A stretch of 38,046 bases of DNA from a virus. Positions 2,327 to 25,030 of this stretch are shown here, piece by piece. Under the pieces are notes generated by a model. It was not told the origin of the DNA, ran no database searches, and was given only the letters and a program-made list of their open reading frames with translations. The stretch covers positions 1-38,046 of the IMG/VR virus record IMGVR_UViG_3300031787_008681; one strand, 5' to 3'. Position 1 is the first letter of the stretch. Every line of letters begins with the position of its first letter. A program made the position numbers and the translations under genes.

Positions 2327-2566
2327 TTATTTAGCCCACTTTAAGCGATAGTTTAATAATGTCTGTTCGTTGTAGAATTCCACGATTAGTTTACACCAGT
2401 GATCATCACGCTGCTCTAGCATTAACTGGCAGTTTCCACGCTGCTGATCCAACAGCCAACGGGTCTGTTCTAGTCCTATGGTTTTGTGTACTTTGGGCCA
2501 ATCTATTTCTATGTGTTCGCCTTCACTGGGTAACCAGCGATATAATTCTACTGCTTTATTCTTCAT
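2327..2566 (-). CDS. Hypothetical protein (79 aa)
   Basis: A small protein rich in Trp, Leu and charged residues (MKNKAVELYRWLPSEG) with no motif that I recognise. Its start overlaps the end of the gp41 helicase gene by 11 bases in another frame, so it is probably translationally coupled to the replication operon upstream. Four tryptophans in 79 residues are notable. No function is proposed. Confidence 0.5.
   Translation of the reverse strand: MKNKAVELYRWLPSEGEHIEIDWPKVHKTIGLEQTRWLLDQQRGNCQLMLEQRDDHWCKLIVEFYNEQTLLNYRLKWAK
2328..2335 (-). promoter_or_regulatory. Late-type -10 box (GCTAAATA) four bases before ATG
   Basis: The minus strand reads GCTAAATA-ATGG-ATG. It differs from the T4 late consensus in its first two bases and is one base closer to ATG than the other near-start boxes. 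It overlaps the stop codon of the upstream 79-residue gene. Confidence 0.35.
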
Positions 2567-3980
2567 CTTGCGTGAGGTTATTGATAAACTGTTTGAGTTT
2601 AGTACTTTCTACTATGGCTTTGGGAGCAGGTGCTAGGCTAGCACCACGATTGGGATCTATGACACCATCTTGATCTACCACTGTGCTGGATCTAGATTTA
2701 ATCTGATTGATGATTTGATTGCTGCGTGTCTGTGATTCCAGTTCCTGCTGATCTTCTGGCAGATCAGAGATTCTCAGCGTTTCTATGTTAAACTCTAGAT
2801 CTATCTTTTGCCCTACACCTGAGCTGGATCTAGTCTTCATCAACTGTAGCTGATAGCGTCCACGTTCACGCATGGCTCGCGAAGTAAAGATACCAAACAC
2901 GTTGTCTGCTGTTTGAATCTTTGAAAGTCCACCTGAAATATGACTGTGATCAAATTCAACTTCTTCCACCGCACCACGATTCAACTGTGCCGCAGTAACA
3001 AACACACATTGTTTTTCCATGGCCAAGTTACGCAATTCTTCTGATACAAATTTGTCTTTGATGAACAGATCTGCTGGCGAAATCTTCTTAGAAATGGGCA
3101 TCAATAGATCCATGTAATCTACTAACAATACATCAACTCTGCGTCCAACCTTTATTTCGTATTCTTTGATGTAAGCACGAATGTCATTGACTGTCTTACC
3201 ACTGGGCATATATTTGACTTGGAACAGGCCTGCTTTCTTGCCCACCAGCTTGACCTTCATTTCAATGTCATCGATATTCCTAAAAATCTCTTTGGTACTG
3301 ACGCCAGTGAGCATTGAGTCAATACGCATAGATACCAATGCTTCTGAAAGTTCTAAAGTTAGGTATATGACATTCATTCCGTTCAATGCCCAGTTCACAC
3401 CTAGGTTTGCCAAGAACAGACTTTTACCAGCACCTGATCCACCTGCGAAGATATTCAACTCTCCGCGATTCATGCCGCCAAACAGTTTACGATCCATAGT
3501 AGACCAGCCTGTACTAACCTGTCCGTTCTTGTCTTTGAGTCCCATCAATCTAGCACGGGGATCAGCAAAATAGTCTGTGCCCATGTCACGTGCTAGACCA
3601 ATCTGTACTGCTTCTTTGATCTTAGATTCAACTTGTCCATAGTCATGTTTTTCTAATAGATCAGCTGACTCAATGATCGCACGTTCTAGACTCTTGTGTC
3701 TAGTAAATGTTTCAAACTCATCCATTAACCAATCTAGATGCCCATCTTTGAGCTCTCCCGGGTCTTTGAATTCAGTACCGCAACTGGCATTGACCATTTC
3801 AAATTCAGGCAACACCGTATATTGTTCTGCGTATTTGTGTATGAATTCAGCAGCTTCTTGTAGTTTTCTATCAAACAGCGAAGCATCAAAAATACCTTGG
3901 CAGCGTACAAATGTTTCCGCATCTGCCAACATCATTTCTAAATACAACTTCTGTACATCGTAATCGTAATTTTTTGTCAT
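2556..3980 (-). CDS. gp41: Replicative DNA helicase (T4 gp41, DnaB family)
   Basis: The hexameric 5'-3' helicase of the T4-type replisome, which unwinds the fork and works with primase gp61. The 474 residues match the T4 protein in length (about 475). An N-terminal helical domain is followed by a RecA-like core: Walker A GGSGAGKS at 180-187 and Walker B VDVLLVDYMD with D288. A GLSK segment with nearby TRSSSG belongs to the conserved DnaB C-terminal motifs. The ATG overlaps the TGA of the SGNH-like gene in an ATGA, so expression is coupled to the operon that starts at gp61. Confidence 0.92.
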   Translation of the reverse strand: MTKNYDYDVQKLYLEMMLADAETFVRCQGIFDASLFDRKLQEAAEFIHKYAEQYTVLPEFEMVNASCGTEFKDPGELKDGHLDWLMDEFETFTRHKSLERAIIESADLLEKHDYGQVESKIKEAVQIGLARDMGTDYFADPRARLMGLKDKNGQVSTGWSTMDRKLFGGMNRGELNIFAGGSGAGKSLFLANLGVNWALNGMNVIYLTLELSEALVSMRIDSMLTGVSTKEIFRNIDDIEMKVKLVGKKAGLFQVKYMPSGKTVNDIRAYIKEYEIKVGRRVDVLLVDYMDLLMPISKKISPADLFIKDKFVSEELRNLAMEKQCVFVTAAQLNRGAVEEVEFDHSHISGGLSKIQTADNVFGIFTSRAMRERGRYQLQLMKTRSSSGVGQKIDLEFNIETLRISDLPEDQQELESQTRSNQIINQIKSRSSTVVDQDGVIDPNRGASLAPAPKAIVESTKLKQFINNLTQDEE

Positions 3981-4660
3981 TTTTTATCTTTGAGATTAAA
4001 TTTACTTACCACGTGGCCATCTCCAGGATAGTTCTTAATTAGTTCTGCTAACTGCTGTGCTAGTCTATGATTATCGTTAATGGATAAATGATTGTCGTAT
4101 TTCATTGTATCTGAGTCAATATGCGAGTAATTAAAAAGATTGTCTTTGAATCTTACGCCTCGCTTAAACTCATAATCATTCCATTTGCCATAAAAACATT
4201 GTAGGTGATATACCTGTTCTATATCAGGATATAGATCTAGTGTTTCGTCAATTTCTCTAAACCATTGTTGTTGAGCCCACAAGTGAAAGTCTTCGCTGAC
4301 CAAATATTGAAAATATGCTTTTGCCGCATCCCACAAGTCGTCGTCATTAGGCTCAATACCTCGTAAACTGCCATCTAGAGAGCAGGCCAATGTTAATGGT
4401 TTGTTACGATCATTGGGCAGTCGCATAGGTTCTGTGTGACAGAAAATCAAAACTTTTGGTTGATTTTTAAGATAAAACGGTAACTGTTTTTTCACACTCC
4501 ACCAACTGGCACCACCCCACCCGTAACCTCTAGCAGGATTGGTAGGTCCCGGATCTTTGTCCGTTAATAGATTTGATAGTCTATAAGGCCAATGATTTGG
4601 AACTTTTCTTTGACTACAAAAACTATCACCTAAAATAACTATATCATTCCACGTATACAT
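3977..4660 (-). CDS. SGNH/GDSL-like hydrolase-family protein
   Basis: The N-terminus reads VILGDSFCS, the GDS block of SGNH hydrolases with S13 as candidate nucleophile. GYGWGGASWW (46-54) could supply the block II glycine. DNHLSINDNHR (189-199) near the C-terminus is in place of the Asp-His block. These enzymes remove acyl or acetyl groups from sugars, lipids or other molecules. The canonical GxND block is not evident (HTEPMRL stands in that region), so activity is uncertain. It overlaps the radical SAM gene upstream by 17 bases and gp41 downstream by an ATGA. Confidence 0.6.
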   Translation of the reverse strand: MYTWNDIVILGDSFCSQRKVPNHWPYRLSNLLTDKDPGPTNPARGYGWGGASWWSVKKQLPFYLKNQPKVLIFCHTEPMRLPNDRNKPLTLACSLDGSLRGIEPNDDDLWDAAKAYFQYLVSEDFHLWAQQQWFREIDETLDLYPDIEQVYHLQCFYGKWNDYEFKRGVRFKDNLFNYSHIDSDTMKYDNHLSINDNHRLAQQLAELIKNYPGDGHVVSKFNLKDKK

Positions 4661-5819
4661 TATTAATATTATACACTCTTATTCTAGTACTAGCAAGCCA
4701 GGGTTCAACCATCTTCCAAGTATCGGGAAATACTTCAGGATAGTTTTGTTCACGTATTTGATCACGTAGATATATTGCCTGCCAAAATGTCTGCCACTTC
4801 CAACTGAGATCATACGGACTGTTAAGATACCCCACAATTACTGATCGTTGTTCTTCCCAATCCTTTTGATCCGTTTTACTTGTCTGTGATTCTAATTTTC
4901 TTATCAACTGATTTCTTATATCTCTAGGAATGATTTGAACACTGTGATCTCCGTGTACAATGTTTAAATAAAAACTAATATTTTTTGATCTATAAAATTC
5001 ATAGGTTTCAAACACATCGTTGATGTTAAACACACTTAGACTAAAACATACACCTAATTTCCAAGGTTGTTGTTTAAAAAGATCTAAATTTGACACATGT
5101 TCATTCCAATTGGCTGGGTGTCTAAGATATTCAAATTTTTGTTCTATGCCGTCTGTGCTGACCTGTATGTCTACACTTTTAAACTTGTTCAACAACTCTA
5201 TATGCTGCGATGGGAATATAGTACCGTTGGTATTATAATGTAGACTGATATCTTGGCTACGTCCTTGTGACACTAACTGCTCTAATAACAACCAGTGGCT
5301 GTCTATATAAAATGGTTCACCACCACTAAAATCAATATGCTGTATAGTATCACTAAACTCATAGAGTTCTTGCCACTGACTGCTGACTTTGAATAACTTA
5401 GGCATCTTATCGCCTAATCGCTTGGCTTCTTCTGCTGCCCATTGGCTGGAGTTTTCTGGACCACATATCCTACAGCGTAGATTACACAGATTATCCATAC
5501 TGACATCTAATACCGCAGGTAGACTATTAGGGGAGAAATTGTCTATGCCCCAACGGTCATTGTCTCTAATTCTCTTAGATTGTTTTCCGGCTTTTTCTTC
5601 GTTCCAACAACTGGAACATTCTGATACAGATTCGCCTTGATCTAAACGCTGAATAAAATGTTGTCTATCTTTGCTAGACCAAAATTCTGATATCTTAGCA
5701 GTTTCTAAAGTTTGACTTTTATTGTCAGTAATAAAAATCTTTCTGCTCATACAACATGGCTTAACTATACCATTTGGATGAACGCTGAGATTCATATAAG
5801 CATTTACACATCGGGTCAT
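4644..5819 (-). CDS. Radical SAM enzyme with extra N-terminal cysteines (twitch/SPASM-like)
   Basis: A 391-residue radical SAM protein. The cluster motif CxxxCxxC is at C112, C116 and C119, and the SAM-binding GGEP is at 166-169. Extra cysteines C4, C22/C23 and the pair C68-x-x-C71 precede the core and could ligate an auxiliary iron-sulfur cluster. Such enzymes use a 5'-deoxyadenosyl radical to modify peptides, sugars or nucleic acids; the substrate is not deducible. The ATG overlaps the TGA of the carbamoyltransferase-like gene (ATGA), which suggests that the two products act together. As I recall, similar proteins occur in marine phages. Confidence 0.8.
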   Translation of the reverse strand: MTRCVNAYMNLSVHPNGIVKPCCMSRKIFITDNKSQTLETAKISEFWSSKDRQHFIQRLDQGESVSECSSCWNEEKAGKQSKRIRDNDRWGIDNFSPNSLPAVLDVSMDNLCNLRCRICGPENSSQWAAEEAKRLGDKMPKLFKVSSQWQELYEFSDTIQHIDFSGGEPFYIDSHWLLLEQLVSQGRSQDISLHYNTNGTIFPSQHIELLNKFKSVDIQVSTDGIEQKFEYLRHPANWNEHVSNLDLFKQQPWKLGVCFSLSVFNINDVFETYEFYRSKNISFYLNIVHGDHSVQIIPRDIRNQLIRKLESQTSKTDQKDWEEQRSVIVGYLNSPYDLSWKWQTFWQAIYLRDQIREQNYPEVFPDTWKMVEPWLASTRIRVYNINNVYVE

Positions 5820-6742
5820 AAGATCTGTGGAGGTTTAATTCGAACGTTAAGGGACAACAGAGCAGCACCAATAGCACTGCTAGGATCTCCAGGATTAGAT
5901 AGTGACCAAATATTTTCCCATTGGGTAGCAAGGTATCGATTATATTTGCTATTCATAGCACAGCCTCCCATATAAACTAGATTTTTACTATCTGTTAATT
6001 TTCGGGCATACAACATGACCATGTCTGCTTGTTCTTCAAACACTCGCTGGACAGCAGCGGCGATATCCCATCGATCTTGATCGCTGATTATCGGGTCTGG
6101 CCAATCTAATACTCCGCAGTGTAGATTATATCTCAATGATAATACACCATCGAAATATTCTCTTACTATATCTAAATATCGGCGATAATCACCTAGCTCG
6201 CTGTCTCTTTGTAATAGATGCTCTTCTGCTACAGGCTTATATCCAATTAATTGAGTAAACGCCGAATAAAACATTCCTAGACTGTTGGGATAAGATCTAC
6301 TCCAAACTTTTTTAAGTTCTGTACCTCGACCTTGCCATATGGTAGCACTTTCCCATTCTCCCATAGCATCTAATACTACCACAGTGGCTTCTTCAAATGG
6401 AGAAGTTAGAAAACCTGCTGCCGCATGACTTTTGTGGTGGGGGAAGTATTTTACCTTAGCATAGCCTAGTTTATTTTCTTTCAGCCATTTATTTGGCAAC
6501 ACCGACATGTCCATGGCTGCTGAATACTGACCAGCATATAACTGTCGTGTTTTTTTCAGCCAAGGTCTTTCGTACCAAGCAATCACACTAGGTCCACGAC
6601 CAGCGGACGAAGTCAACGCTCTATGTATGATCCCAGAGTCACTGTCTACACCTTTGACAGTTTCAAATCTTTTTAATTGATGGCCCTCAAATACCGCTAT
6701 ACTGATATCGTGATTTAGGGCGTTTATTCCCCAGGTAATCAT
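5816..6742 (-). CDS. Carbamoyltransferase-like protein (NodU/CmcH N-terminal domain only)
   Basis: A 308-residue protein matching the Kae1/TsaD-like domain of NodU/CmcH/TobZ carbamoyltransferases. It shows HHKSHAAAGF at 102-111 (metal-binding histidines), VVVLDAMGEWE around D125, MGGCAMNSKYN, and NPGDPSSAIGAAL near the end. Family members usually have 500-600 residues, with a C-terminal YrdC-like domain that makes carbamoyl-adenylate. That domain is absent, so the protein would need an activated carbamoyl donor from elsewhere, or does something else. It is coupled by ATGA overlaps to the 30-residue peptide upstream and the radical SAM gene downstream. Confidence 0.8.
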   Translation of the reverse strand: MITWGINALNHDISIAVFEGHQLKRFETVKGVDSDSGIIHRALTSSAGRGPSVIAWYERPWLKKTRQLYAGQYSAAMDMSVLPNKWLKENKLGYAKVKYFPHHKSHAAAGFLTSPFEEATVVVLDAMGEWESATIWQGRGTELKKVWSRSYPNSLGMFYSAFTQLIGYKPVAEEHLLQRDSELGDYRRYLDIVREYFDGVLSLRYNLHCGVLDWPDPIISDQDRWDIAAAVQRVFEEQADMVMLYARKLTDSKNLVYMGGCAMNSKYNRYLATQWENIWSLSNPGDPSSAIGAALLSLNVRIKPPQIL

Positions 6743-6831
6743 TTGTATATAAACGGATCACGTTTGCGTAATTCTTTAATACGCTTACGATATCTCAACC
6801 AGTCTCTAAATCTTTTGTATAGCCTAAACAT
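6739..6831 (-). CDS. Small basic protein, 30 aa
   Basis: A 30-codon gene from ATG 6831 to TGA 6739. The product starts MFRLYKRFRDW and ends KELRKRDPFIYK, with about 14 Lys/Arg. The start overlaps the last eight bases of gp61 and the stop overlaps the ATG of the carbamoyltransferase-like gene (ATGA), which fits this operon's packing. I recall a very similar ending (ELRKRDPFIY) in small proteins of marine T4-like phages, which supports it being real. Function unknown; the charge suggests nucleic-acid or membrane-surface contact. Confidence 0.6.
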   Translation of the reverse strand: MFRLYKRFRDWLRYRKRIKELRKRDPFIYK

Positions 6832-7831
6832 TTTCTTGTACCTTTTTATCAAATTTGTTCTTATATAAATTTATCCGAATAGCACCTTGTTGTGCTGTTG
6901 AGATGGCATCAACTATTACAAATAAATTTCCATATTTTCTTACAGCATCAGAACAATCTTTAACATCTGACTCCCAATTAGGAAACGCCACTGACCAATC
7001 CCATTTTAACGCATGTTCAATTAACTTACTGCCTGCCTTGTCTTGGTCAGGAATAACTATTACTTCCTTGCCCATTTTATTGATTAACCTAGCTTGATTT
7101 TCTGATATTTCGTTGTGTAGCAATGCTACTCCGTTTACAGCCATGGCATCAAACGGACCCTCTACTACAAACAAATATCTTTGATCTTGTTTTATAGAAT
7201 CAAGGTTAAACACAAAATTGGGATGTTGATCTGAAAGATATTTAGGTTTACCGTCGCGAACTTTCCTAGCAGTCCAGCCTACAACTCTACCACCATAAGT
7301 AAACGGAATGATTACTCTATCTTTGATATCAATCGGAGTCCAATAGAACCTATCGTCTAACGGATCACAACCTCTGTCTACTAGATAACTAACTACTTCT
7401 GCTAGCTGAGTTTCTAGTTCTGAATCTAACTCTTGGTCAATCCATTCAGCTATGGGCAACGACCCCTCTGGCATATCTTTATTAACAAAGTCTATTAATT
7501 CTCTATCTTTGGTATTATCTTCAGCCCCGCCTTCGGTCTTTAGTGCTTCAAATACCATCAGATTAATATCATCGTCCGGAGCACCTAACCATATCATTAA
7601 CTGACGTAGCTTTTGGCTAATCTGTCTACCAGGTTTCCAACTTGCGGTATACCCGCAATTAAAACAGTTAAAGACTAGGCCTTCAGAAAATTTAGCACCG
7701 CCACGTTGTCTTGTATCAACACCTTCGCCTCTGTGGTGGCAACAGGGAGAATCGAAACTTATCCAACCGCTAGGGGTCTGTTTCTTTTTATAAGGGAGAT
7801 GTTTGCGAAAGATGTCTACGACCAGGGCCAT
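6824..7831 (-). CDS. gp61: DNA primase (T4 gp61)
   Basis: The primase subunit that makes RNA primers for lagging-strand synthesis with helicase gp41. The 335 residues fit T4 gp61 (342). The N-terminus has the zinc-binding module: CCHH at 30-33 and CFNCG at 56-60. A TOPRIM domain follows, with YLFVVEGPFDAMAVNG holding the catalytic Glu and VIVIPDQDKAG supplying the Asp-x-Asp pair. A consensus sigma-70-type promoter ends six bases before the ATG and there is no Shine-Dalgarno site, suggesting early, leaderless expression. It heads the operon ending in gp41. Confidence 0.9.
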   Translation of the reverse strand: MALVVDIFRKHLPYKKKQTPSGWISFDSPCCHHRGEGVDTRQRGGAKFSEGLVFNCFNCGYTASWKPGRQISQKLRQLMIWLGAPDDDINLMVFEALKTEGGAEDNTKDRELIDFVNKDMPEGSLPIAEWIDQELDSELETQLAEVVSYLVDRGCDPLDDRFYWTPIDIKDRVIIPFTYGGRVVGWTARKVRDGKPKYLSDQHPNFVFNLDSIKQDQRYLFVVEGPFDAMAVNGVALLHNEISENQARLINKMGKEVIVIPDQDKAGSKLIEHALKWDWSVAFPNWESDVKDCSDAVRKYGNLFVIVDAISTAQQGAIRINLYKNKFDKKVQENV

Positions 7832-8711: not shown

Positions 8712-9290
8712 TCAACTATACTCGTAGCTGATACCTTCGCAAATTAAATTCATCTGTACCACAATAGCTGCCGCATAGGCTGTAGCATGACTTTTTTTAA
8801 AATAATACTCGTCGTTATCTGGTTTCGTCCATACTTCCGTCATCACCGTAGTCCAATCTTTCCCAATCAGATAACGTTTCGCCGGGCGAATCATTGCTAG
8901 CACTGCTGCCAATTCTTCTATAGACTTTGGCTTGCTTTGTCTCAGAATAGACCCATGCCCATTCACATGGAACAGGAGTTGGGTAAAGTCGTCTTGCTCG
9001 AGTAGGTCCCATAGTGGTTCAGTCTCCATTAATTGTTTGAGATGCTCTTCATCTCGTACATTTTTGTAAACTCCAACATTCAAAAAATCTATCTTAAAAT
9101 AATCTTTTTCTTCTGCGGTATTATGATCCACAGAGCAAATATTTTGTACTGCGTCTACAGGCACAGAATGTAGATACACTCCTGTATTATGGGGAACTAA
9201 CGACCCCCTTTCCACTCTACTAGCTTTGATGTGTTTGATTACACCTAAGGCTTTATTGCGGTCTTCAAAGTCAATATCTATATCTGGCAT
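8712..9290 (-). CDS. Miniature DnaE-like protein (DNA polymerase III alpha palm/fingers motifs)
   Basis: A 192-residue protein with collinear matches to bacterial DnaE. MPDIDIDF at the N-terminus matches the PDFDVDF palm motif. HNTGVYLHSVPV matches HAGGVVIAP. YFKIDFLNVGVYKNV matches the VKFDFLGL strand with the third catalytic Asp. LLFHVNGHGSI...SIEELAAVLAMIRPA matches the FQLESRGM...FEDMIALVALFRPG fingers region. FKKSHATAYAA matches FNKSHSAAYAL. The three metal-binding aspartates appear kept, while PHP, most of the palm, the beta-binding and OB domains are missing (DnaE has about 1,160 residues). Whether it polymerises DNA, blocks host DnaE or scaffolds something else is unknown. It sits at the end of the uvsW-gp62 operon. 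Confidence 0.7.
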   Translation of the reverse strand: MPDIDIDFEDRNKALGVIKHIKASRVERGSLVPHNTGVYLHSVPVDAVQNICSVDHNTAEEKDYFKIDFLNVGVYKNVRDEEHLKQLMETEPLWDLLEQDDFTQLLFHVNGHGSILRQSKPKSIEELAAVLAMIRPAKRYLIGKDWTTVMTEVWTKPDNDEYYFKKSHATAYAAAIVVQMNLICEGISYEYS

Positions 9291-14380: not shown

Positions 14381-15196
14381 ATGAGTAGAAAGTTTGCTGT
14401 AGTTACTACATTCCATGAAGCAGGATATCGAACATACGGTCGCAGGATGATCGAAACGTACATGAAAAATTGGCCGTCTGAGGTTAAATTACACCTATAT
14501 CCAGAAAAGGTTAACCCTGTAGTTCCAGATCATTCTAGAATTACATTAACTGACCTAGATACCGGAGTTCCTGACCTAAAAGCATTTAAAGATCAGTGGA
14601 GAGGAGTACCTCATGCCAATGGGGACATTTCGGGCATACCAAGATTGTCCCATAGAAAAGACAGCCATAAGCCTTTTAAATGGGACGCTGTGAGATTTGC
14701 TCACAAAGTCTATTCAATTTTTCACTGTGCTGCTAATTGTAATGCCGACGTACTAATATGGATGGACGCAGACATGGTTTGTCATAGCCCTATAACCATA
14801 GATAAAATTAATAATCTTATTCCCCTCGACCTAGATCTATGTTATCTTGGTAGAGATAACAAATTTTCTGAGTGTGGACTGTATTCGTTAAATCTGCGAT
14901 CAGAGATGACCAAAAATTTCCTCAGAGAATTTCAACGCATGTACGACAATGCCGAGGGTGGAATATTTCTTCTAGACGAATGGCACGACAGTTATGTTTT
15001 TGACGAAGTGCGTAAGAGATTTCCTTACCTAAAACAGTTAAATTGGAGTAAGGGTCTAATCAAAGGGGAAGGTCACCCCTTAATTAACTGTGAATGGGGT
15101 GCTTACCTTGATCATCTCAAAGGTGAACGCAAAGACACAGGTAAAAGTCTAAAAAAAGATCTCCGTGTCTTAAGGAAAGAGTCGTACTGGCAATGA
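14381..15196 (+). CDS. GT-A-type glycosyltransferase-like protein
   Basis: A 271-residue protein with a GT-A fold pattern: an N-terminal strand (KFAVVTTFHEAGY), then VLIWMDADMVCHSP with DAD as the metal/nucleotide-sugar motif. CYLGRDNKFSECGLYSLNL and EWHDSYVFDEVRK follow, as in acceptor-site regions. It should move a sugar from a nucleotide donor; donor and acceptor unknown. I recall close relatives in marine T4-like phages. It is the first of four plus-strand genes, with GGAGG at ideal spacing, and its stop overlaps the next ATG. Confidence 0.7.
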   Translation: MSRKFAVVTTFHEAGYRTYGRRMIETYMKNWPSEVKLHLYPEKVNPVVPDHSRITLTDLDTGVPDLKAFKDQWRGVPHANGDISGIPRLSHRKDSHKPFKWDAVRFAHKVYSIFHCAANCNADVLIWMDADMVCHSPITIDKINNLIPLDLDLCYLGRDNKFSECGLYSLNLRSEMTKNFLREFQRMYDNAEGGIFLLDEWHDSYVFDEVRKRFPYLKQLNWSKGLIKGEGHPLINCEWGAYLDHLKGERKDTGKSLKKDLRVLRKESYWQ

Positions 15197-15870
15197 AAAG
15201 TTTTGTAATTTTTCAAAATCAGATAGAAATGAGCGTAAAATTTGCTCAGGAGGCAGTTTCAGCCGCGGCAAAACATGGCATAGATCTTAGAGGATGGGTC
15301 GGTAGCGACGGACTTAAAGACCAACACAAGTTTGAACAGTACGGTATCAAAAATTTTCTCCAAGACAAGATAGAAAAACTTCCAGGGGTCAAAGGTTGCT
15401 TTCTTAGCCACTACGAATTATGGAAAAAATGCCTAGATCAAGGTGAAACTTTTTTAATCTGCGAACATGATGGAATTTTTATTAGAAATTTACCAGATGA
15501 CATTGAAAACAATTTTACAGATGTTTTAAATTTAGATCCCTACGATCAGTTTGTTGAAGGCTACGACGAAAAAGTGAAAAAAAGTTTGAATATACCAATA
15601 AAATATCATGAAGTTGAGCCCAGCGACTATGATATGGCCGGGGGTTATCTTAAAGGTGCCTATGGTTACCTTATAAAACCGCAAGGTGCTGAAAAATTAA
15701 TAAAATTTGCTCAAGAACAAGGAGCACTACCTACAGACAAACACATAGGCACAGCAGTAGTTGATATAAAAGTCACTAATGTACCAATAGTTAGGCTACA
15801 CGAGTTTTTTGATATGAAAAATCTTAGAAAATTTAGCCTTACAAAAAATTTAGAGAAATTTTCCAAATGA
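15193..15870 (+). CDS. Glycosyltransferase family 25-like (LPS type)
   Basis: The 225-residue product has the family 25 hallmark GCFLSHYELWKKCLDQGE (residues about 68-85), followed by FLICEHDGIF, where E-x-D is the usual metal-binding pair. GAYGYLIKPQGAEKL and PTDKHIG fit the C-terminal family features. These enzymes add galactose or related sugars to LPS or protein. It overlaps both neighbours by ATGA, so the plus-strand genes form one translated block. Acceptor unknown; a surface glycan of host or virion is likely from context. Confidence 0.75.
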   Translation: MKSFVIFQNQIEMSVKFAQEAVSAAAKHGIDLRGWVGSDGLKDQHKFEQYGIKNFLQDKIEKLPGVKGCFLSHYELWKKCLDQGETFLICEHDGIFIRNLPDDIENNFTDVLNLDPYDQFVEGYDEKVKKSLNIPIKYHEVEPSDYDMAGGYLKGAYGYLIKPQGAEKLIKFAQEQGALPTDKHIGTAVVDIKVTNVPIVRLHEFFDMKNLRKFSLTKNLEKFSK

Positions 15871-16670
15871 TAGTTGATGTTTTTCCATTTTTTAATGAAT
15901 TTGAAATATTAAATATCCGATTAAAAATTTTAAATCAGCATGTAGATAAATTTGTTATCGTAGAGCACGATATCGATTTTAACAACCAACCCAAACCCTT
16001 TAGATTAGAGTCTAAAATTGATCATCTAAAGTCAATATACGGAAATAAAATTGATTACATGAAAATACATTCGGATCCAATGCTTGATCATAAATGGGCT
16101 CAAGAAATACATCAAAAAAATAATATGTCTTGTGCTTTAGATTTATATCCTGACGCATATTTTTTATTTGGGGACTTAGACGAAGTTCCAAATCCTGATT
16201 ATTTTCAAGAAGCTATCGAGTTATATCATAAAAGTGGTCCTTGTCTGTTTTCATTACGCTGGTGTATCAGTCGATGGGATATAGTACTAGAAAGAAGATG
16301 GCCAGGACCAGTATTTGGAAAAAAGTCTGATGTGTTATCAGCAGGTGGCGGTCGTAAATTTATGTGTCCCGGCGGAAGTAAAAGCATGCACTGGAAAAAA
16401 CCCACTTATCCTGAAATTTACCCCAGCGGATGGCATTGGAGCTTCTTTGGTGATTCAACAAAGATTGCCGAAAAGCTCGATGCTGTATTAGAAGGAAGTA
16501 AAATAAGGAAAAAAATTAAAGGTGTCAACGAACATAAAATTCTAGGAGCAGGCGAATTGTCTAATTTTTTAAAAAAATACTGCGGAGAAATATTAGAGTC
16601 CCCTCCCAATAATCTTTATCCAGATAATGTAAAAAATATTTTGTTACAATACAAAGAGTGGTGGAGATAA
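15867..16670 (+). CDS. Glycosyltransferase family 17-like protein
   Basis: A 267-residue protein resembling family 17 (beta-1,4-N-acetylglucosaminyltransferase type). It starts MIVDVFPFFNEFEILNIRL, has VDKFVIVEHDIDFNNQPKP, the acidic motif FLFGDLDEVPNP, and SGWHWSFFGD near the C-terminus, all in family order. The expected reaction is transfer of an N-acetylhexosamine or similar sugar. Very AT-rich codons: the line at 16561-16620 has 18 G+C in 60 by hand count. Coupled by ATGA to the gene before, and followed after three bases by the next ATG. Confidence 0.75.
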   Translation: MIVDVFPFFNEFEILNIRLKILNQHVDKFVIVEHDIDFNNQPKPFRLESKIDHLKSIYGNKIDYMKIHSDPMLDHKWAQEIHQKNNMSCALDLYPDAYFLFGDLDEVPNPDYFQEAIELYHKSGPCLFSLRWCISRWDIVLERRWPGPVFGKKSDVLSAGGGRKFMCPGGSKSMHWKKPTYPEIYPSGWHWSFFGDSTKIAEKLDAVLEGSKIRKKIKGVNEHKILGAGELSNFLKKYCGEILESPPNNLYPDNVKNILLQYKEWWR

Positions 16671-16673
16671 TAC

Positions 16674-17369
16674 ATGTATCAAATAATAACTGGAATGTCT
16701 AAAAAATATTATGATCACATTGGCCAAGATATGATTAAATCATGGTTAGAATATTGGCCAACTAATTTAATCTTAACTGTATACTCTGAAGATGATTTAA
16801 GAATAGACCATCCCCGAATACAAATTGTAAGTTTATCTACAATGGATCAAACGTATCACGATTTTCAAAACCATACGTCAAAAAAGTTCAATGAACGATC
16901 AAAGACGTTCGCAAAAAAAGCCTGGCCAATAATGGAAAATTTAAAAAATGACCAGGGAAAATTAATATGGTTAGATGCTGATGTAATAACCGAAAGCGAA
17001 ATAACGCTTTCGTGGTTAGATAGTTTATTAGCAAAAAACGAGTTTAGTTGCCATCTTGGAGTTCCCCAAAATGAATATTATTCCGTAGAAACAGGTTTCT
17101 TTATTATTAATTTAGAGAATAAATTTAAAAATATGTTTTTAGAAAAATATAAAACCATCTATTATACTAGAGATTTTTCAAATATGAAAAAACCTTTTGA
17201 TGGCGATGTATTTGGAAGAATTATTACAGAAATGAGACCTATTGATAATTTTAAGTTTAACGATCTAAGCCCGTCATTGGATAGCTTTAGTCCGTTTAAT
17301 AGAATATTCAAAGGCAAAATGAAACATTATAAAGCAAAGAAAAAAATAACATTCGTGTCAGCTGTTTAG
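16674..17369 (+). CDS. GT-A-type glycosyltransferase-like protein
   Basis: The 231-residue product has LIWLDADVITESEI (D-x-D near residue 100), preceded by a helical region KTFAKKAWPIMENLK and followed by ETGFFIINLENK and FDGDVFGRII. This matches the small GT-A pattern in the gene at 14381, suggesting a distant paralogue. Sugar and acceptor unknown. It ends the plus-strand run. Its stop codon overlaps the stop of the convergent gene by four bases, so no separate terminator fits between them. Confidence 0.65.
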   Translation: MYQIITGMSKKYYDHIGQDMIKSWLEYWPTNLILTVYSEDDLRIDHPRIQIVSLSTMDQTYHDFQNHTSKKFNERSKTFAKKAWPIMENLKNDQGKLIWLDADVITESEITLSWLDSLLAKNEFSCHLGVPQNEYYSVETGFFIINLENKFKNMFLEKYKTIYYTRDFSNMKKPFDGDVFGRIITEMRPIDNFKFNDLSPSLDSFSPFNRIFKGKMKHYKAKKKITFVSAV

Positions 17370-18289
17370 ATAAATTTTTTGATGTGACGCCATGCTTGAC
17401 CTGTTAGTACATCTTCATTATTCCAATGACTCATTGATATTCTTTCTATCCAATCTTGGCGATCTGGCATTTGCGGGTTTTCAAGCAATGATAAGGAATG
17501 ATTGCTAACCTCATATGCTTGACTTATACGAGGATTAAGATCTGTTACAAACACAGGTACACCTTCTATCGCAGCAGCGACTCCGGGAGAACTGTTATAA
17601 GTTATTACTGCGTGAGCATTTACAAAATCTTGTGTGATCAATTTATTAAAACTCACAGTATAAAGACTTGAGTTGTTATTAGAAACTACACTTTCTCTTG
17701 ATCCCTTAGCACCTGGATGTGATCGCACAACAATAGGACGATCGGAATATTTTCTAATTTCGGCAATAGTTTGATTCAACCACTGATTAACTTCTAGTCC
17801 TTTCATAGACCATCCGCCGGGACGTTGTGTACAAATGAGAATATGATTTCCTTTTGTACGCCAGTCTTTCAATGATATACCTTGATCTCGACTTATTTGC
17901 TGCCATCTACTAGGATCGGGATTATTCCAAAAATAATTAGCCGTGGTTGGGAAAACTCCGTCAAAACTATACCTTAGATACCTATCTTTATTTTCAGGAT
18001 CTGCGTAATTGAATAAGTTACTGTCTACAACCAGTGTGCGTTTTTTATAAATTCGTTGATTTTCAATCACACGTTTTCTAACTAATAAGTGAGGTGAATT
18101 ATCACTGCCTTCATGAACCCACCCTTGGATAAATGCCACATCGGCCTGTACGATATTATTTCCTGTTTGTAAAAATCCGTCGTCACCGGCAGCTCTTACA
18201 CCTTGTATAAATCTTGAAAGGATTTCTCTCTTGTGTTGATTTTTAACGCCAGGGGGAACGCCAGAGATATATCCAACTACTGTAGTCAT
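17366..18289 (-). CDS. GT-B/capsule-type glycosyltransferase-like protein
   Basis: I take ATG 18289 (MTTVVGYISGVPPG), which overlaps the upstream TGA (ATGA), rather than the ATG at 18310. The protein has IVVRSHPGAKG and AVITYNSSPGVAAAIEGVPVFV, a pattern of capsule/Kdo-type transferases (KpsS/KpsC-like), where the HP motif and the YNSxxG...G-x-P-V region bind the nucleotide sugar. ICTQRPGGWSMKG sits at the domain boundary. Similar in layout to the gene at 19193-19984, so the two are probable paralogues. Substrate unknown. Confidence 0.6.
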   Translation of the reverse strand: MTTVVGYISGVPPGVKNQHKREILSRFIQGVRAAGDDGFLQTGNNIVQADVAFIQGWVHEGSDNSPHLLVRKRVIENQRIYKKRTLVVDSNLFNYADPENKDRYLRYSFDGVFPTTANYFWNNPDPSRWQQISRDQGISLKDWRTKGNHILICTQRPGGWSMKGLEVNQWLNQTIAEIRKYSDRPIVVRSHPGAKGSRESVVSNNNSSLYTVSFNKLITQDFVNAHAVITYNSSPGVAAAIEGVPVFVTDLNPRISQAYEVSNHSLSLLENPQMPDRQDWIERISMSHWNNEDVLTGQAWRHIKKFI

Positions 18290-19200
18290 AGCTGTTGTAC
18301 TATTTTCCAAAACTCTTCAGTTGCTGATACACATTCATCTAAAGCAGACGGATGAGCTTCTGCTTTTTCGATAGCCTCAGAAATTTTTTCATTCTTTAAT
18401 AGAACATAAGGTTTATGTTTTAAATGTTGAAATTTAGAACTCCACGTATCAGTTAAAATTACTTTTTTCCCCAACAGTGTTCCCCAATAAACTCCATGGT
18501 AACTGTTAGTTACTATAATATTTGAAGAACCTAATATTTCAATTGTCTGTTCAATGTTACTGCCTGAATTTATAAATCTAGGCATTGCTATATCGCCAAA
18601 CTCTCTTGTTAATTGTTTTTTATGTTCAAACCAAATAATTTCGTTTTTAATTTCATATTTTTTTCTCAGAGCAGGATGCATACAACTAGCACAAGGTGCC
18701 CAAGAATAGTTCTGTCCGTAATCTCTAATACCAACAAGATCAAAATTGTTTAGATATTCTGGATACTCTATTGTTGATGCTTTTTTTGTAGGATCGCCAT
18801 TATGTCCTGCTCCCCACACTATTTTTTTAGATGTATTTGGATCTAAACTATTAATTGTTTCGGACAAGAGATTTGAGAATTTTTCAGTAAATGTTTTATG
18901 AACGTTAGCATTTCTAATATCATTTAAAAACCATGATTTTTTTCTAAATTCTGATAAATGAGCATAATCTCCACCACCAATGATTGATAAAAATCTATCA
19001 AAATTATCATTAGAAATTAAACCACCACCACCCACTATAATTTTTGTATCAGGCGAAATTTTTACATCAGCTGGCCATTCGGATATATCTATACTATGAT
19101 ATTGATCTTTTTTTAAAAAATATTGAAGGGGATCTGCGGCCATATCGCCAACATTATTTTTGTCTTTTCTATGTATTACTAGGTATTTTATATTACTCAT
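18286..19200 (-). CDS. Polysaccharide pyruvyltransferase-family protein
   Basis: A 304-residue protein with the order of motifs seen in polysaccharide pyruvyl transferases (WcaK/CsaB type): NVGDMAADPLQYFL near the N-terminus, IIVGGGGLIS, IVWGAGHNGD, LVGIRDYGQ, APCASCMHP, and VTNSYHGVYWGTLLGKKVI. The family usually adds a ketal pyruvate to sugar residues, putting negative charge on a surface polymer; some members do other sugar chemistry. It overlaps its neighbours by eight and four bases in the minus-strand half of the island. Confidence in the family is good, in the exact reaction low. Confidence 0.75.
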   Translation of the reverse strand: MSNIKYLVIHRKDKNNVGDMAADPLQYFLKKDQYHSIDISEWPADVKISPDTKIIVGGGGLISNDNFDRFLSIIGGGDYAHLSEFRKKSWFLNDIRNANVHKTFTEKFSNLLSETINSLDPNTSKKIVWGAGHNGDPTKKASTIEYPEYLNNFDLVGIRDYGQNYSWAPCASCMHPALRKKYEIKNEIIWFEHKKQLTREFGDIAMPRFINSGSNIEQTIEILGSSNIIVTNSYHGVYWGTLLGKKVILTDTWSSKFQHLKHKPYVLLKNEKISEAIEKAEAHPSALDECVSATEEFWKIVQQL

Positions 19201-19984
19201 TTAATATTTTCCAAACTGAACCGTTTTTCATTTCCGTGAAACTAAATTGTCCATAGGCCAAATGGCATCCCCACGCAAATAATTTATCGCTGTCTGGGTA
19301 GTAGGGGTTATCTATTTGACTGAGGTCCTGAGACCCAACTGGACTAGCAGCATTGGCCGGTGCTAGTGTAAATGCTGGTATACCGTGAAATATACTTTCA
19401 ACGGCTGCTACGCTATTGTATGTAACTAGAGCAAAAACATCATTGTCTAATGCTTGTTGTAGTGTATCTGTTGTTATTCTATCAGTACGCAACTTAGCAC
19501 GTTCTCTAACAACCACAGGGCGATCAGTGTATTGTTGTATAGTTTCTACAGTTTCTTTTACCCACTGGTCTTTAATTATGCCGTAAAATTTACAAGGTTT
19601 TTCATCCGGTGCTGCCACCAATATCTTTCGACCGTCTTTTTTCCAAGGTTGAAATTTTTTATTAAATTTTTCAAATCTATCTGCTGGTCTCGAAACTATC
19701 TCCCCGTGCTGTAAGTTATTTTTAACAATGCGGTGCCATAATTTCCAACCATTAGGATTAGCACGAGTTTTTTCATTTCCAAAATAGCCTGTGTCAACAT
19801 AATAAAAGTCTCGCTGATCTCTCCAACAATTTTTCATTATTTTATCTTTGAGGATGCCACGCAGTACAATAGGTTCATTGCTACTTTTATAATCAAAATT
19901 GTCAGTGTTTACTAGAGTTCCGTTAGAACCTCGACAAAATTGATTGATATATTCGTCGTGGCCGTTTTTACTTAAGAATATCAT
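19193..19984 (-). CDS. GT-B-like protein, paralogue of the 17366-18289 product
   Basis: The 263-residue product contains RPVVVRERAKLR, FALVTYNSVAAVESIFHGIPAFTL and ILVAAPDEKPCKF, parallel to RPIVVRSHPGAKG, VITYNSSPGVAAAIEGVPVFV and HILICTQRPGGW in the neighbour two genes away. This suggests the same fold and a duplication. The HP pair is replaced by RERAK, so catalysis may differ. The start region overlaps the end of the next gene upstream by 17 bases. Substrate and acceptor unknown. Confidence 0.55.
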   Translation of the reverse strand: MIFLSKNGHDEYINQFCRGSNGTLVNTDNFDYKSSNEPIVLRGILKDKIMKNCWRDQRDFYYVDTGYFGNEKTRANPNGWKLWHRIVKNNLQHGEIVSRPADRFEKFNKKFQPWKKDGRKILVAAPDEKPCKFYGIIKDQWVKETVETIQQYTDRPVVVRERAKLRTDRITTDTLQQALDNDVFALVTYNSVAAVESIFHGIPAFTLAPANAASPVGSQDLSQIDNPYYPDSDKLFAWGCHLAYGQFSFTEMKNGSVWKILNE

Positions 19985-20663
19985 GTTGTTGGCAATGCTC
20001 TGTTAATACACGCTCTCTATGCCATTCATTGGCAAAACTTCCCTGTGTGGCAAATTCATGAAAGCAAGGTGTGCCTAGAGTGTAATGTACCAGTTTAGCG
20101 TTGGGATTATAATCATATTCAACATCTAACCAGTTCCATTCCTTAGGCAGTTCACCTATACGATCTTCCTCTAGCCACGAGAAGCGGTGGAGCTCGGCAC
20201 CTGTAGATTGTTGGATGAACTCGGGAGTAAGTCTCCGGTTAGGAAAGCTATTACAATTCCACAGAATAACACTAGACCAATTTTTTCGAGGATAGTCTTC
20301 ATTTTTTGCTCCTAAATATTTTATAGGCATTTTTGTTTTATAGTCATGCTTAACTACTTGTACATCTTTGCCGACTTCACGTAAGTCCCAAAGCTCTGCG
20401 ATATCGCCACGCACAATCATGTCGCCGTCTATGAATATAGCATGACCAGTGTAGCTCATAAGATAGGGAACAAGAAATCTAGTATAGATAAAATGATTAC
20501 TACCGTCAGTATGTGTTTCGGTATAATCTTTAAAAAGACTAAGTGCTACTGGAATAATGCTAACAGGGCGGCTGGAATTTCTTATTATGCTGTTTACACA
20601 GGTATGGTACGCTATGGCTTCTCTAGGATCGTATCCAATAAAAATAGGAATGATATCTTTCAT
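19968..20663 (-). CDS. Glycosyltransferase family 8-like protein
   Basis: A 231-residue protein starting IIPIFIGYDPREAIAYHTC, a family 8 type opening. It has AIFIDGDMIVRGDIAELWDL (D-x-D motif plus helix), NWSSVILWNC, LPKEWNWLD and LVHYTLGTPCF, the last corresponding to the family's C-terminal HxxG-type metal site. These retaining enzymes move glucose or galactose from UDP-sugars. Four-base overlap with the methyltransferase-like gene upstream. Its place among LPS-type genes suggests a surface-glycan acceptor. Confidence 0.75.
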   Translation of the reverse strand: MKDIIPIFIGYDPREAIAYHTCVNSIIRNSSRPVSIIPVALSLFKDYTETHTDGSNHFIYTRFLVPYLMSYTGHAIFIDGDMIVRGDIAELWDLREVGKDVQVVKHDYKTKMPIKYLGAKNEDYPRKNWSSVILWNCNSFPNRRLTPEFIQQSTGAELHRFSWLEEDRIGELPKEWNWLDVEYDYNPNAKLVHYTLGTPCFHEFATQGSFANEWHRERVLTEHCQQHDILK

Positions 20664-21097
20664 ACACTAACCTTTGATAAAATATATCTATTATACCTAA
20701 AATTTTCTACAGAATTAAAATGAGCAGTGAGTAATTTTGATATACTATCTTCAGTAAATGCTCGTTTCCATTCTAATTTTTTTTTAACAGGAAGTGTTAA
20801 TATTAAAAACATATTGGCAAAGTTTTTTATTTTATTAAGCACAATATCTGGATTATCTACATATTCAAGAACACCAAGTAATAATCCCACATCGTAGTTT
20901 TTAATTTTTATGTCGTCAATATCTAAATTTAAATTCATCATTGCGTTTGGAATTTTATCTATTCCGAGATATTCTTTAGGTTTATAAAAATTTAAAATTT
21001 CTTGATTGCCACAGCCAAAGTCTACAACAGTACAGTCTATTGGTATGTGTGTCACAACAAAATTAAATCGTTCGCTCCAAGGATTCTTTGAATTCAT
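20660..21097 (-). CDS. SAM-dependent methyltransferase-like protein (small)
   Basis: A 145-residue class I methyltransferase-like protein: TVVDFGCGNQEIL matches the SAM-binding motif I, EYLGIDKIPNAM matches motif II, and VGLLLGVLEYVDNP fits the motif before strand 5. It is short compared with typical 200-250 residue members, so it may hold only the core Rossmann domain. Its place in the island suggests methylation of a sugar or a terminal glycan residue. It shares a four-base overlap with the genes before and after. Confidence 0.65.
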   Translation of the reverse strand: MNSKNPWSERFNFVVTHIPIDCTVVDFGCGNQEILNFYKPKEYLGIDKIPNAMMNLNLDIDDIKIKNYDVGLLLGVLEYVDNPDIVLNKIKNFANMFLILTLPVKKKLEWKRAFTEDSISKLLTAHFNSVENFRYNRYILSKVSV

Positions 21098-21837
21098 TTT
21101 CGTTCTATGTCTTCTTCAATACATTGTTTGCCATATTGTATTTCTATAACCTTTAACGGGTTATCTGTAGGATTGTGTAATTGGTGCCATTCATTAGGAT
21201 TAATAATTTCAGTTTTATAAGGCTTAATTGTGCTTCCACCAAATTCCCAATTGTTGCCGGCAACTCCTTCGGCAATAAACCATAATTCAGATCTATGTTT
21301 GTGGCGTTGCATACTTAAAGTTTTACCTGGATCTACAGTAAGTTCTTTAACTTTTACATTGTCACCTATAGTATGAAGTACTCTATAATAACCCCAAGGT
21401 CTTTCAGTCTTTGGTGCTTTCCATTCTTGTAAAATCCATCTACTAGAGTTTTGCTTGTCAAACCCGCCTACACCAAACGTAAATGTAAGATTGTCATCTT
21501 TAACGTCCATTTCTGGAATGTTAGCGTGTGTTCGATCGCCGCCGTTGGCAAATATTAAACTGGCGTCAGGATAATGTGCTCGAACCTGTTGTATAAAATG
21601 TCTAGCAGAACCATCAGCATCATCAAATGTGTAAACTTCATCTACCATTGATAGATTGTTTATTATACATAGGCGTTCGTTCCAAGGCATAAAGGCACGC
21701 CCTTTTTTACGTTCTAGCCATTCATCGGAATTTAATCCAACGATTAACATGTCGCCAAGTGTTTTGGCTTGTTTGAAATAGGCAATATGCCCAGAGTGGA
21801 TGGGGTCAAAGCCGCCTGTAACAAGTACTATTTTCAT
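21094..21837 (-). CDS. Cytidylyltransferase-cupin fusion (sugar-nucleotide enzyme)
   Basis: I take ATG 21837, giving 247 residues; the frame is open upstream but MKIVLVTGGFDPIHSGH starts a fold-typical strand and a late-type box ends five bases before it. Residues 1-140 are a nucleotidyltransferase of the HxGH class (H14, H17), like glycerol-3-phosphate or heptose-phosphate cytidylyl/adenylyltransferases. Residues 145-247 are a cupin like the C-terminus of ManC (RPWGYYRVL, QRHKHRSELWFI, EWHQLHNPTDNPLKVIEIQ), a mannose-6-phosphate isomerase type. The fusion could make an activated sugar. I have not seen it as a standard bacterial arrangement. Confidence 0.75.
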   Translation of the reverse strand: MKIVLVTGGFDPIHSGHIAYFKQAKTLGDMLIVGLNSDEWLERKKGRAFMPWNERLCIINNLSMVDEVYTFDDADGSARHFIQQVRAHYPDASLIFANGGDRTHANIPEMDVKDDNLTFTFGVGGFDKQNSSRWILQEWKAPKTERPWGYYRVLHTIGDNVKVKELTVDPGKTLSMQRHKHRSELWFIAEGVAGNNWEFGGSTIKPYKTEIINPNEWHQLHNPTDNPLKVIEIQYGKQCIEEDIERK

Positions 21838-21842
21838 GTTTC

Positions 21843-21850
21843 TATTTATT
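21843..21850 (-). promoter_or_regulatory. Late-type -10 box (AATAAATA) five bases before ATG
   Basis: The minus strand reads AATAAATA-GAAAC-ATG(21837). It matches the T4 late consensus except for the first base. No Shine-Dalgarno site lies before the ATG, so the transcript is predicted to be leaderless. Confidence 0.5.
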
Positions 21851-21864
21851 TGAATAATATGCCC

Positions 21865-21891
21865 ACTAAATAAACTGTGGTTTAAAGAGGA
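21865..21891 (+). promoter_or_regulatory. Late-type box ACTAAATA with Shine-Dalgarno AGAGGA
   Basis: ACTAAATA (21865-21872) lies 25 bases before the plus-strand ATG at 21898, and AGAGGA (21886-21891) is at normal spacing. This is the conventional leader type, in contrast to the divergent box at 21843-21850. Confidence 0.5.
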
Positions 21892-21897
21892 AACAAA

Positions 21898-22242
21898 ATG
21901 ATTGCTGGAAAAGTATGGGGGCAAACAGAGCTCCTTGAAGCCAACGGTGTGCTAGAGTTCCACCGCATTGAAGCCCGGAAAGGCGGCGTCTGTTCGAAGC
22001 ACAAACATCAATTTAAATGGAACGGGTTTTTTGTTGAATCTGGAAAACTTATTATTCGTGTTTGGAAAAACAACTACGAGTTGATTGATGAAACTATTCT
22101 AACAGCTGGACAATATACCAAGGTTGCCCCCGGAGAATATCATCAATTTGAAGCACTAGAAGATACAGTTGCTTTTGAATTGTACTGGGCAGAGTTTGAT
22201 CATGAAGATATAGAAAGAGATTCAGTAGGATTTAAAAAATGA
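21898..22242 (+). CDS. Single-domain cupin protein
   Basis: A 114-residue cupin: GVCSKHKHQFKWNGFFVESGKLII is the first cupin motif with its His/Glu ligands, and VAPGEYHQFEALEDTVAFELYW is the second. It resembles sugar-phosphate isomerase or epimerase-type cupins and the cupin domain of the divergent fusion gene. It probably acts on a sugar phosphate or nucleotide sugar; a purely binding role is possible. Strong Shine-Dalgarno site. The TGA overlaps the ATG of the dehydrogenase gene, suggesting a shared pathway. Confidence 0.7.
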   Translation: MIAGKVWGQTELLEANGVLEFHRIEARKGGVCSKHKHQFKWNGFFVESGKLIIRVWKNNYELIDETILTAGQYTKVAPGEYHQFEALEDTVAFELYWAEFDHEDIERDSVGFKK

Positions 22243-23012: not shown

Positions 23013-23522
23013 TTTTTGTCCTACAAAAACGTGATCGTTCCATTTAGTTGAATCTTTTTCTGTAGATTCTCTATCTACCCAATTAGCAATAATTTTTAAT
23101 TCGCATTCTTCTGCGATTGCCTTAAACGCATCGTCCATAAATCTCCAACAATCTCTTACGTCATGTCTTGGACCGGCACTAGGAGCAATAATTATAATAA
23201 ATCCATTAAATTTTACTACTCGTTTTATTTCAGTTACAAGACGAAATGGATTTTTTACATGCTCTAATGTTTGCCCGCTTACAATAATATCATAATAATT
23301 GTCTTCTGAAGGTATGGTATATTCAGATGGCATAATATGAGTTACATCTTCGCCTGCTACAATATCTGCTATATGATATTCATTAGAGTGATCTATTAAC
23401 AAGGATTTATAAGATCTATCTCCTTTTAATCCTCTTCCGCCAATGTCTAACACAGATAAATTTTTTTTAAGTTCTATTAAAGATAGAGCTTTTTTCATAT
23501 TTTGAATAGATGAACTATGCAT
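23007..23522 (-). CDS. SAM-dependent methyltransferase (type 11-like)
   Basis: A 171-residue class I methyltransferase. LSVLDIGGRGLKGDRSYKSL is motif I, EYHIADIVAGEDV fits motif II, and YDIIVSGQTLEHVKNPFRLVTEIKRV with FIIIIAPSAG are the later motifs. DCWRFMDDAFKAIAEE is typical of sugar or small-molecule methyltransferases in glycan clusters. The substrate is unknown. It overlaps the upstream methyltransferase-like gene by eight bases in a different frame. No ribosome-binding site separate from the upstream gene is visible, so coupling is likely. Confidence 0.7.
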   Translation of the reverse strand: MHSSSIQNMKKALSLIELKKNLSVLDIGGRGLKGDRSYKSLLIDHSNEYHIADIVAGEDVTHIMPSEYTIPSEDNYYDIIVSGQTLEHVKNPFRLVTEIKRVVKFNGFIIIIAPSAGPRHDVRDCWRFMDDAFKAIAEECELKIIANWVDRESTEKDSTKWNDHVFVGQKL

Positions 23523-25004: not shown

Positions 25005-25030
25005 TCAAAAATCCTTTAAAATTAACTGAG

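What the first reader, a model, noticed from the sequence alone, without database searches (positions are those of the whole stretch)
3977..6831. Radical SAM, carbamoyltransferase-like, SGNH-like and 30-residue genes embedded between primase and helicase
In T4-type phages gp61 and gp41 work as one complex. Here four coupled genes (17-base or ATGA/eight-base overlaps) are inserted between them, so they are made with the replisome. The carbamoyl protein has only the Kae1-like domain and the SGNH protein lacks a clear block III, suggesting a reduced pathway. Together they could modify a phage or host molecule: a nucleotide or DNA base, a peptide (the 30-mer as substrate is possible), or a glycan. 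I know no described system with exactly this set.
Basis: inference. Interest (0 to 1): 0.72.

Follow-up and report, generated by a model that had tools for sequence, protein, structure and literature searches.

The report
Phage carbamoyltransferase module inside replication operon
In a T4-like environmental phage, a small chemical-tailoring gene set (a carbamoyl-attaching enzyme, its obligate tiny partner protein, a radical enzyme and an esterase-like protein) sits between the DNA primase and helicase genes; the same set recurs in other viruses and resembles a bacterial operon, but the phage enzyme has lost the half that activates the carbamoyl group, which raises the question of where it gets it.

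Summary
In detail: primase, 30-mer, carbamoyltransferase, radical SAM, SGNH and helicase overlap by 8, 4, 4, 17 and 4 bases. The four genes are not one inseparable unit at this site. In 72 relatives (helicase query), 30-mer and carbamoyltransferase occur together in 61 and are both missing in 11; radical SAM plus SGNH is added in only one. The 30-mer is a conserved companion ending DPFIYK, not a likely RiPP substrate. Bacterial carbamoyltransferases have the analogous DUF5989/SxtK peptide (APFIYTLF end), plus SxtJ and a GDSL esterase: the closest known system is the sxtI-J-K-L type operon. The phage enzyme keeps the whole Kae1-like active site but has lost the carbamoyl-AMP-forming YrdC-like domain, at least twice independently; most large short-form records carry a second full-length carbamoyltransferase. 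Best reading: a reduced O-carbamoyltransferase module that tailors a hydroxylated sugar-like acceptor, in a slot where T4 also holds non-replisome genes. The substrate is not shown. The 5hmC route is not supported.

The parts
6824..7831 (-). DNA primase (T4 gp61-like), upstream neighbour
   Evidence: PHROG 47 E 3.7e-35; TIGR01391 dnaG; Toprim
6739..6831 (-). 30-aa carbamoyltransferase companion peptide MFRLYKRFRDWLRYRKRIKELRKRDPFIYK
   Evidence: Conserved ..KKRxxELRKRDPFIYK tail in 61 distinct tails; never seen without carb among complete loci
5816..6742 (-). Carbamoyltransferase-like protein, Kae1-like domain only (308 aa); H11 base, H102/H106/D125/D286 metal ligands
   Evidence: PF02543 E 8.4e-27; residues invariant in 39 short forms, mapped to GdmN H27, H133, H137, D156, D333 (PMC9633730)
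4644..5819 (-). N-terminal-twitch radical SAM protein (391 aa), CxxxCxxC motif CNLRCRIC
   Evidence: NF033640 285 bits, cut-off 170; PF04055 and SPASM over cut-off
3977..4660 (-). SGNH-hydrolase-fold protein (227 aa); block I GDS (S13), block V His (H191); no block III Asn
   Evidence: AF2 model pLDDT 66, pTM 0.68; SGNH matches, Z 11.7; alignment of 4
2556..3980 (-). Replicative DnaB-like helicase (T4 gp41-like), downstream neighbour
   Evidence: PHROG 19 E 3.7e-69; PF03796
14381..25703 (.). Glycan/nucleotide-sugar island of the same phage (GT25, GT17, GT8 x2, polysaccharide pyruvyl transferase, CTP transferase plus mannose-6-P isomerase, UDP-sugar dehydrogenase, epimerase, methyltransferases); possible acceptor source
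   Evidence: Pfam; most of it also present in G001, the one relative with rSAM+SGNH in the slot. Functional link to the cassette is inference

Best explanation
The four genes are a phage version of an O-carbamoyltransferase module. Shown: the carbamoyltransferase (Kae1-like domain, intact active site) and the 30-aa peptide are an obligate pair; SGNH and N-twitch radical SAM genes are recurrent additions to that pair in other viruses. Inferred: the 30-mer docks on the enzyme through its invariant DPFIY tail, as DUF5989/SxtK may do in bacteria. [quoted passage not shown] removal or exchange of an ester). Inferred: because its own carbamoyl-AMP-forming domain is lost, the activated carbamoyl comes in trans, most likely from a second full-length phage carbamoyltransferase. 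The place between primase and helicase is a cargo slot of T4-like genomes and gives co-expression with replication genes; it need not mean work at the fork.
For: Pairing: 61 of 72 relatives have 30-mer and carb, 11 have neither, none has only one. Pair outside the slot with SGNH next to it: L116/L117 (found by the SGNH query alone), L120, L122/L236, L251, L007; with N-twitch rSAM: L026, L120, L122, L251. Active site invariant (PMC9633730). Adenylating domain lost at least twice within one phage clade. A second full-length carb in 16 of 29 short-form records but 0 of 13 full-form ones (records of 60 kb or more: 16/23 v 0/7, p 0.0017, not corrected for relatedness). Bacterial analogue: DUF5989 ending APFIYTLF or similar next to carb in 52 of 80 loci; the coordinates of all 7 DUF5989 genes of 14 genomes lie within about 1 kb of carb; SxtJ and GDSL genes in the same operons. 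Sugar context: UDP-sugar dehydrogenase, glycosyltransferases and cytidylyltransferases near several copies and in the window. SGNH model resembles carbohydrate acetylesterases among others.
Against: No substrate is shown. Three of 12 large short-form records (one of 270 kb) have no C domain anywhere, though records may be incomplete. The AF2 read-through fusion of peptide and enzyme left the DPFIY tail at low confidence and undocked. The 30-mer to DUF5989 link rests on four residues plus gene adjacency; a global profile comparison fails. In 60 of 61 relatives with the pair in the slot there is no rSAM or SGNH beside it. The link between second carb and domain loss is confounded by shared ancestry and record size.
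Confidence: 0.55

Rival explanations
1. DNA or nucleotide modification: the pair carbamoylates a hydroxymethylated base or nucleotide during replication, like the described 5hmC carbamoyltransferase; the radical SAM and SGNH enzymes tailor it further.
For: Conserved position in the primase-helicase gap, and a second arrangement next to primase, ThyX and NrdA (L235); T4 keeps beta-gt and dCMP hydroxymethylase near 41/uvsX; a phage carbamoyltransferase acting on 5hmC is proven (PMC8670742).
Against: No thymidylate-synthase/hydroxymethylase family gene (PF00303) in 17 of 20 records, including the 269-kb nearest relative and others of 238-280 kb. The window enzyme does not group with the 5hmC enzyme and lacks its C domain. 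Other copies of the cassette lie in sugar clusters.
Confidence: 0.2
2. Kae1-only enzymes use host threonylcarbamoyl-AMP (from TsaC) or another carbamoylating donor rather than phage carbamoyl-AMP, acting on RNA or on a new acceptor.
For: Active site kept without the adenylating domain; TsaC-family genes found in all 14 control genomes, while the phage records have no separate YrdC gene.
Against: Family match is to Carbam_trans_N and not TsaD; a second full-length carbamoyltransferase exists in most large short-form records.
Confidence: 0.1
3. RiPP-like system: the 30-mer is the substrate of the radical SAM enzyme.
For: Small basic peptide beside a twitch/SPASM-type radical SAM in the window.
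Against: The peptide occurs with carb in 60 relatives without the rSAM beside it; its C-terminus is invariant and N-terminus variable, the reverse of a leader-core precursor; no Cys, Ser or Thr in the window's 30-mer.
Confidence: 0.04
4. Unrelated cargo: the genes accumulated in an accessory slot and have no common pathway.
For: T4 has five non-replisome genes in this gap; other insertions here are 2OG oxygenases, a DUF2061 membrane protein and a GIY-YIG-like gene.
Against: The same four kinds recur together in independent viral clusters and carb, small peptide and GDSL genes recur in bacterial operons.
Confidence: 0.11

Closest known systems
sxtI-sxtJ-sxtK-sxtL and the wider bacterial carbamoyltransferase-SxtJ-DUF5989-GDSL operons
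   Same: Carbamoyltransferase with a tiny adjacent gene ending PFIY and a GDSL/SGNH gene; in Pelagibacter the small gene directly precedes carb, as in the phage (PMC2679770)
   Different: Phage peptide is about 30-45 aa and lacks the full DUF5989 membrane segment; no SxtJ in the gap; radical SAM added; carb has lost the YrdC-like domain
Class III O-carbamoyltransferases TobZ and GdmN
   Same: Kae1-like domain with the catalytic His and four metal ligands (PMC9633730)
   Different: No YrdC-like carbamoyl-AMP-forming domain in the window protein
Phage 5-hydroxymethylcytosine carbamoyltransferase (MetaGPA; PMC8670742)
   Same: Phage carbamoyltransferase
   Different: Full length, linked to thymidylate-synthase-type genes and distant in the tree
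Marine virus AG-345-D19 contig MH319727 (unannotated)
   Same: SGNH-SGNH-peptide(DPYIYEE)-carb-N_Twi rSAM cluster
   Different: Full-length carb; not between primase and helicase on the 8-kb record
T4 genes 61.1-61.2-sp-61.4-dmd between 61 and 41
   Same: Accessory genes in the primase-helicase gap
   Different: Unrelated genes; opposite order of 61 and 41

Membership tests
Class III O-carbamoyltransferase (TobZ/GdmN/NodU) | Kae1-like N domain (PF02543) | tested here: met
   94.9 bits, cut-off 24
Class III O-carbamoyltransferase (TobZ/GdmN/NodU) | Catalytic His and two His plus two Asp metal ligands | tested here: met
   H11, H102, H106, D125, D286 invariant in 39 short forms (mapping from PMC9633730)
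Class III O-carbamoyltransferase (TobZ/GdmN/NodU) | YrdC-like C domain (PF16861) that forms carbamoyl-AMP | tested here: not met
   Protein ends at 308 aa before the C domain; no PF16861 match by Pfam scan of the protein
Class III O-carbamoyltransferase (TobZ/GdmN/NodU) | Carbamoyl transfer activity | not testable with these tools
   -
sxtIJKL-type operon | Small DUF5989/SxtK protein next to carb | tested here: inconclusive
   No Pfam match for the 30-mer; shared PFIY tail and adjacency, hhalign P 1.6e-4 over 4 columns, global comparison fails
sxtIJKL-type operon | SxtJ gene | tested here: not met
   None of the genes between primase and helicase matches PF19588
sxtIJKL-type operon | GDSL/SGNH gene | tested here: met
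   SGNH fold by model; Pfam GDSL match absent
N_Twi_rSAM NF033640 | Score over the curated cut-off and CxxxCxxC motif | tested here: met
   285.4 against 170 bits; CNLRCRIC in the translation
SGNH hydrolase | Fold, block I Ser and block V His | tested here: met
   Z 11.7, rmsd 3.5, about 155 residues; GDS and H191 invariant in 4
SGNH hydrolase | Block III Asn and DxxH Asp | tested here: not met
   CHTE/CHTD in place of GxND; position H-3 not a conserved Asp
5hmC carbamoyltransferase pathway | Thymidylate-synthase-family hydroxymethylase in the phage | tested here: not met
   PF00303 absent from nearest relative G001 and 16 other records, present in G007, G010, G012; the window record is only a 38-kb fragment
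RiPP precursor and radical SAM maturase | Conserved leader, variable core, co-occurrence with the maturase | tested here: not met
   Conserved C-terminus; 60 of 61 relatives in the slot have no rSAM beside it

The most novel reading that the evidence does not exclude
A two-part carbamoyltransferase in which a Kae1-only subunit plus a 30-residue PFIY-tailed partner takes carbamoyl-AMP (or host threonylcarbamoyl-AMP) made by another protein, and, from within the replication operon, modifies nucleotides, primers or DNA.
Probability: 0.15. Interest if true: 0.85.

Novelty: new variant of a known kind. Interest (0 to 1): 0.58.

Why it matters
It gives a testable role to two unexplained things at once: the tiny proteins that accompany carbamoyltransferases across phyla (DUF5989/SxtK), for which no paper was found under the name DUF5989 in the held library, and carbamoyltransferases that have repeatedly lost the domain that makes their activated intermediate. 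If the donor is passed between proteins, the internal-channel view of class III carbamoyltransferases needs an exception. It also identifies a recurrent viral tailoring module whose core pair is widespread in T4-like environmental phages.

Tried and rejected
Idea that the 600-bp gene after carb in about ten relatives is a split YrdC domain: rejected, it is a 2OG-Fe(II) oxygenase (PF13759). Separate YrdC/Sua5 genes in 20 viral records: none over the cut-off. AF2 of a natural read-through fusion of peptide and carb (L053, stops read as Gly): enzyme folded well, tail undocked at pLDDT under 50, so uninformative. The first fusion alignment scattered the peptide rows and was discarded. tblastn of the 30-mer against annotated phages: no match, but the filter and length make this weak; reading MH319727 by eye found one. 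SGNH sequence search in PDB: only a chance match. No PDB sequence relative of the rSAM. The GCS-type neighbours in other viruses are called SGNH-like by motif (G-C-S, N, H) and DUF6071 for two; profile comparison with the window SGNH gave P 0.001 over blocks I-III only. Literature: no paper on DUF5989 and none on twitch radical SAM proteins in phages in the held library.

Full report
What is there. On the minus strand of the window the order is primase (6824-7831), a 30-aa peptide (6739-6831), a 308-aa carbamoyltransferase-like protein (5816-6742), a 391-aa radical SAM protein (4644-5819), a 227-aa SGNH-like protein (3977-4660) and the replicative helicase (2556-3980). Every junction overlaps: 8, 4, 4, 17 and 4 nt. 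The flanks are T4-like (primase PHROG 47, helicase PHROG 19). The nearest cultured helicase relatives are PA5oct-like Pseudomonas jumbo phages at 51% identity, in which primase and helicase lie side by side.

Which parts belong together. Using the helicase as a query that is blind to the inserted genes, IMG/VR gave 72 distinct contigs with both primase and helicase. The 30-mer and the carbamoyltransferase are both present in 61 and both absent in 11 (two 30-mers missed by the profile were found by reading). The radical SAM and SGNH genes are in this gap in only one of them, the contig of L002, which is also the nearest large relative (269 kb, G001). So at this site the stable unit is 30-mer plus carb, and the two other genes are an addition. 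Other loci put different genes in the same gap: a 2OG-Fe(II) oxygenase after carb, a DUF2061 membrane protein or a GIY-YIG-like gene between 30-mer and carb.

Does the four-gene set mean anything? Yes, by recurrence. The SGNH protein used alone as a query found two contigs, both with SGNH, 30-mer and carb in a row, the larger one followed by primase, ThyX and NrdA. The radical SAM query found jumbo-phage loci with N-twitch radical SAM arrays beside 30-mer and carb, with an SGNH-like gene directly before the 30-mer (L120, L122/L236). The single-cell virus contig MH319727 carries SGNH, SGNH, a peptide ending DPYIYEE, carb and an N_Twi radical SAM gene. L007 has 30-mer, short carb, SGNH-like gene and a cytidylyltransferase, with a clamp-loader gene nearby.

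The peptide. Across 61 distinct tails the last residues are ..KKRxxELRKRDPFIYK; D, P, I and Y are invariant although their codons vary, so it is translated and selected. The N-terminus varies. In 80 bacterial and archaeal carbamoyltransferase loci, 52 have an adjacent small gene ending in PFIY or a close variant, mostly APFIYTLF; in 14 whole genomes PF19451 (DUF5989) matched once in each of seven, and its coordinates put it within about 1 kb of carb each time. Pfam confirms DUF5989, SxtJ and GDSL genes beside carb in examples. The saxitoxin genes sxtI, sxtJ, sxtK, sxtL are a carbamoyltransferase, two small unknown proteins (sxtK 165 bp) and a GDSL-lipase (PMC2679770, PMC2684587). I infer that the phage peptide is a short counterpart of DUF5989/SxtK. 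The sequence support is only the four-residue tail plus adjacency and order; a global profile comparison fails, and AF2 did not dock the tail.

The enzyme. The Kae1-like residues that bind iron and act as base in GdmN (H27, H133, H137, D156, D333; PMC9633730) correspond to H11, H102, H106, D125 and D286 here and are invariant in 39 short phage forms. The YrdC-like domain that makes carbamoyl-AMP is missing. All these phage enzymes form one clade with full-length members at the same genomic site, and the domain was lost at least twice inside it. The replisome-slot copy is full length in 12 of 61 relatives. Genomes with the short form often carry a second, full-length carbamoyltransferase of another clade (16 of 29 records; 16 of 23 of 60 kb or more), genomes with the full form do not (0 of 13; 0 of 7). 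In G001 the second copy lies in the tail region beside a gene that reads like a glycosyltransferase (that label is by eye). This suggests supply of the activated donor in trans, but relatedness and incomplete records confound it.

The other two enzymes. The radical SAM protein is a clear member of the N-terminal-twitch family NF033640, of unknown substrate. The SGNH model matches thioesterase I and many carbohydrate acetylesterases; Ser and His are conserved, the block III Asn is not.

What it likely does. Sugar-nucleotide or glycosyltransferase genes accompany several copies, and the window has an 11-kb glycan island, most of it shared with G001. I therefore favour carbamoylation and related tailoring of a sugar-like acceptor. 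The described phage 5hmC carbamoyltransferase (PMC8670742) is a real alternative kind, but its partner gene family is absent from 17 of 20 records, its sequence is distant and it is full length. The position by itself is weak evidence, because T4 has five unrelated genes between 61 and 41. The substrate remains open.

Noticed in passing
window 14381-25703: Glycan/nucleotide-sugar island on both strands; most genes are 68-95% identical to G001, some (15867-16670, 18286-19200, 20660-21097, 23007-24111) have no match there.
   Followed up: partly
G001 109817-111734; G008 87779-90441; G009 121-2783; G019 54928-56885: An N_Twi radical SAM gene lies next to ThyX in four phage records.
   Followed up: no
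G016, G037, G007, G001, L119, L236: Tandem arrays of about 5 to 12 N_Twi-type radical SAM genes in jumbo phages, some with a long protein of repeated glycosyltransferase-like units.
   Followed up: partly
L005 6001-6961, L022 6001-6971: The carb reading frame is interrupted near codon 40 (shifted by one base, or by a short insertion); assembly error, frameshift or decay.
   Followed up: no
L027 5082-5873 (also L029, L056): A gene that reads like a GIY-YIG homing endonuclease is inserted exactly between 30-mer and carb.
   Followed up: no
window 8712-9290: 192-aa protein conserved in nearly all relatives with a weak DNA polymerase III finger-domain match (E 0.0099).
   Followed up: no
L120 8175-8381, L236 near 10456: In two jumbo-phage types the peptide has an acidic, longer N-terminus but the same DPFIYR end.
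   Followed up: no
L060 3978-4969: A MIP18/PaaD-like small protein and an oxygenase-like gene follow full-length carb in the same gap (read by eye).
   Followed up: no
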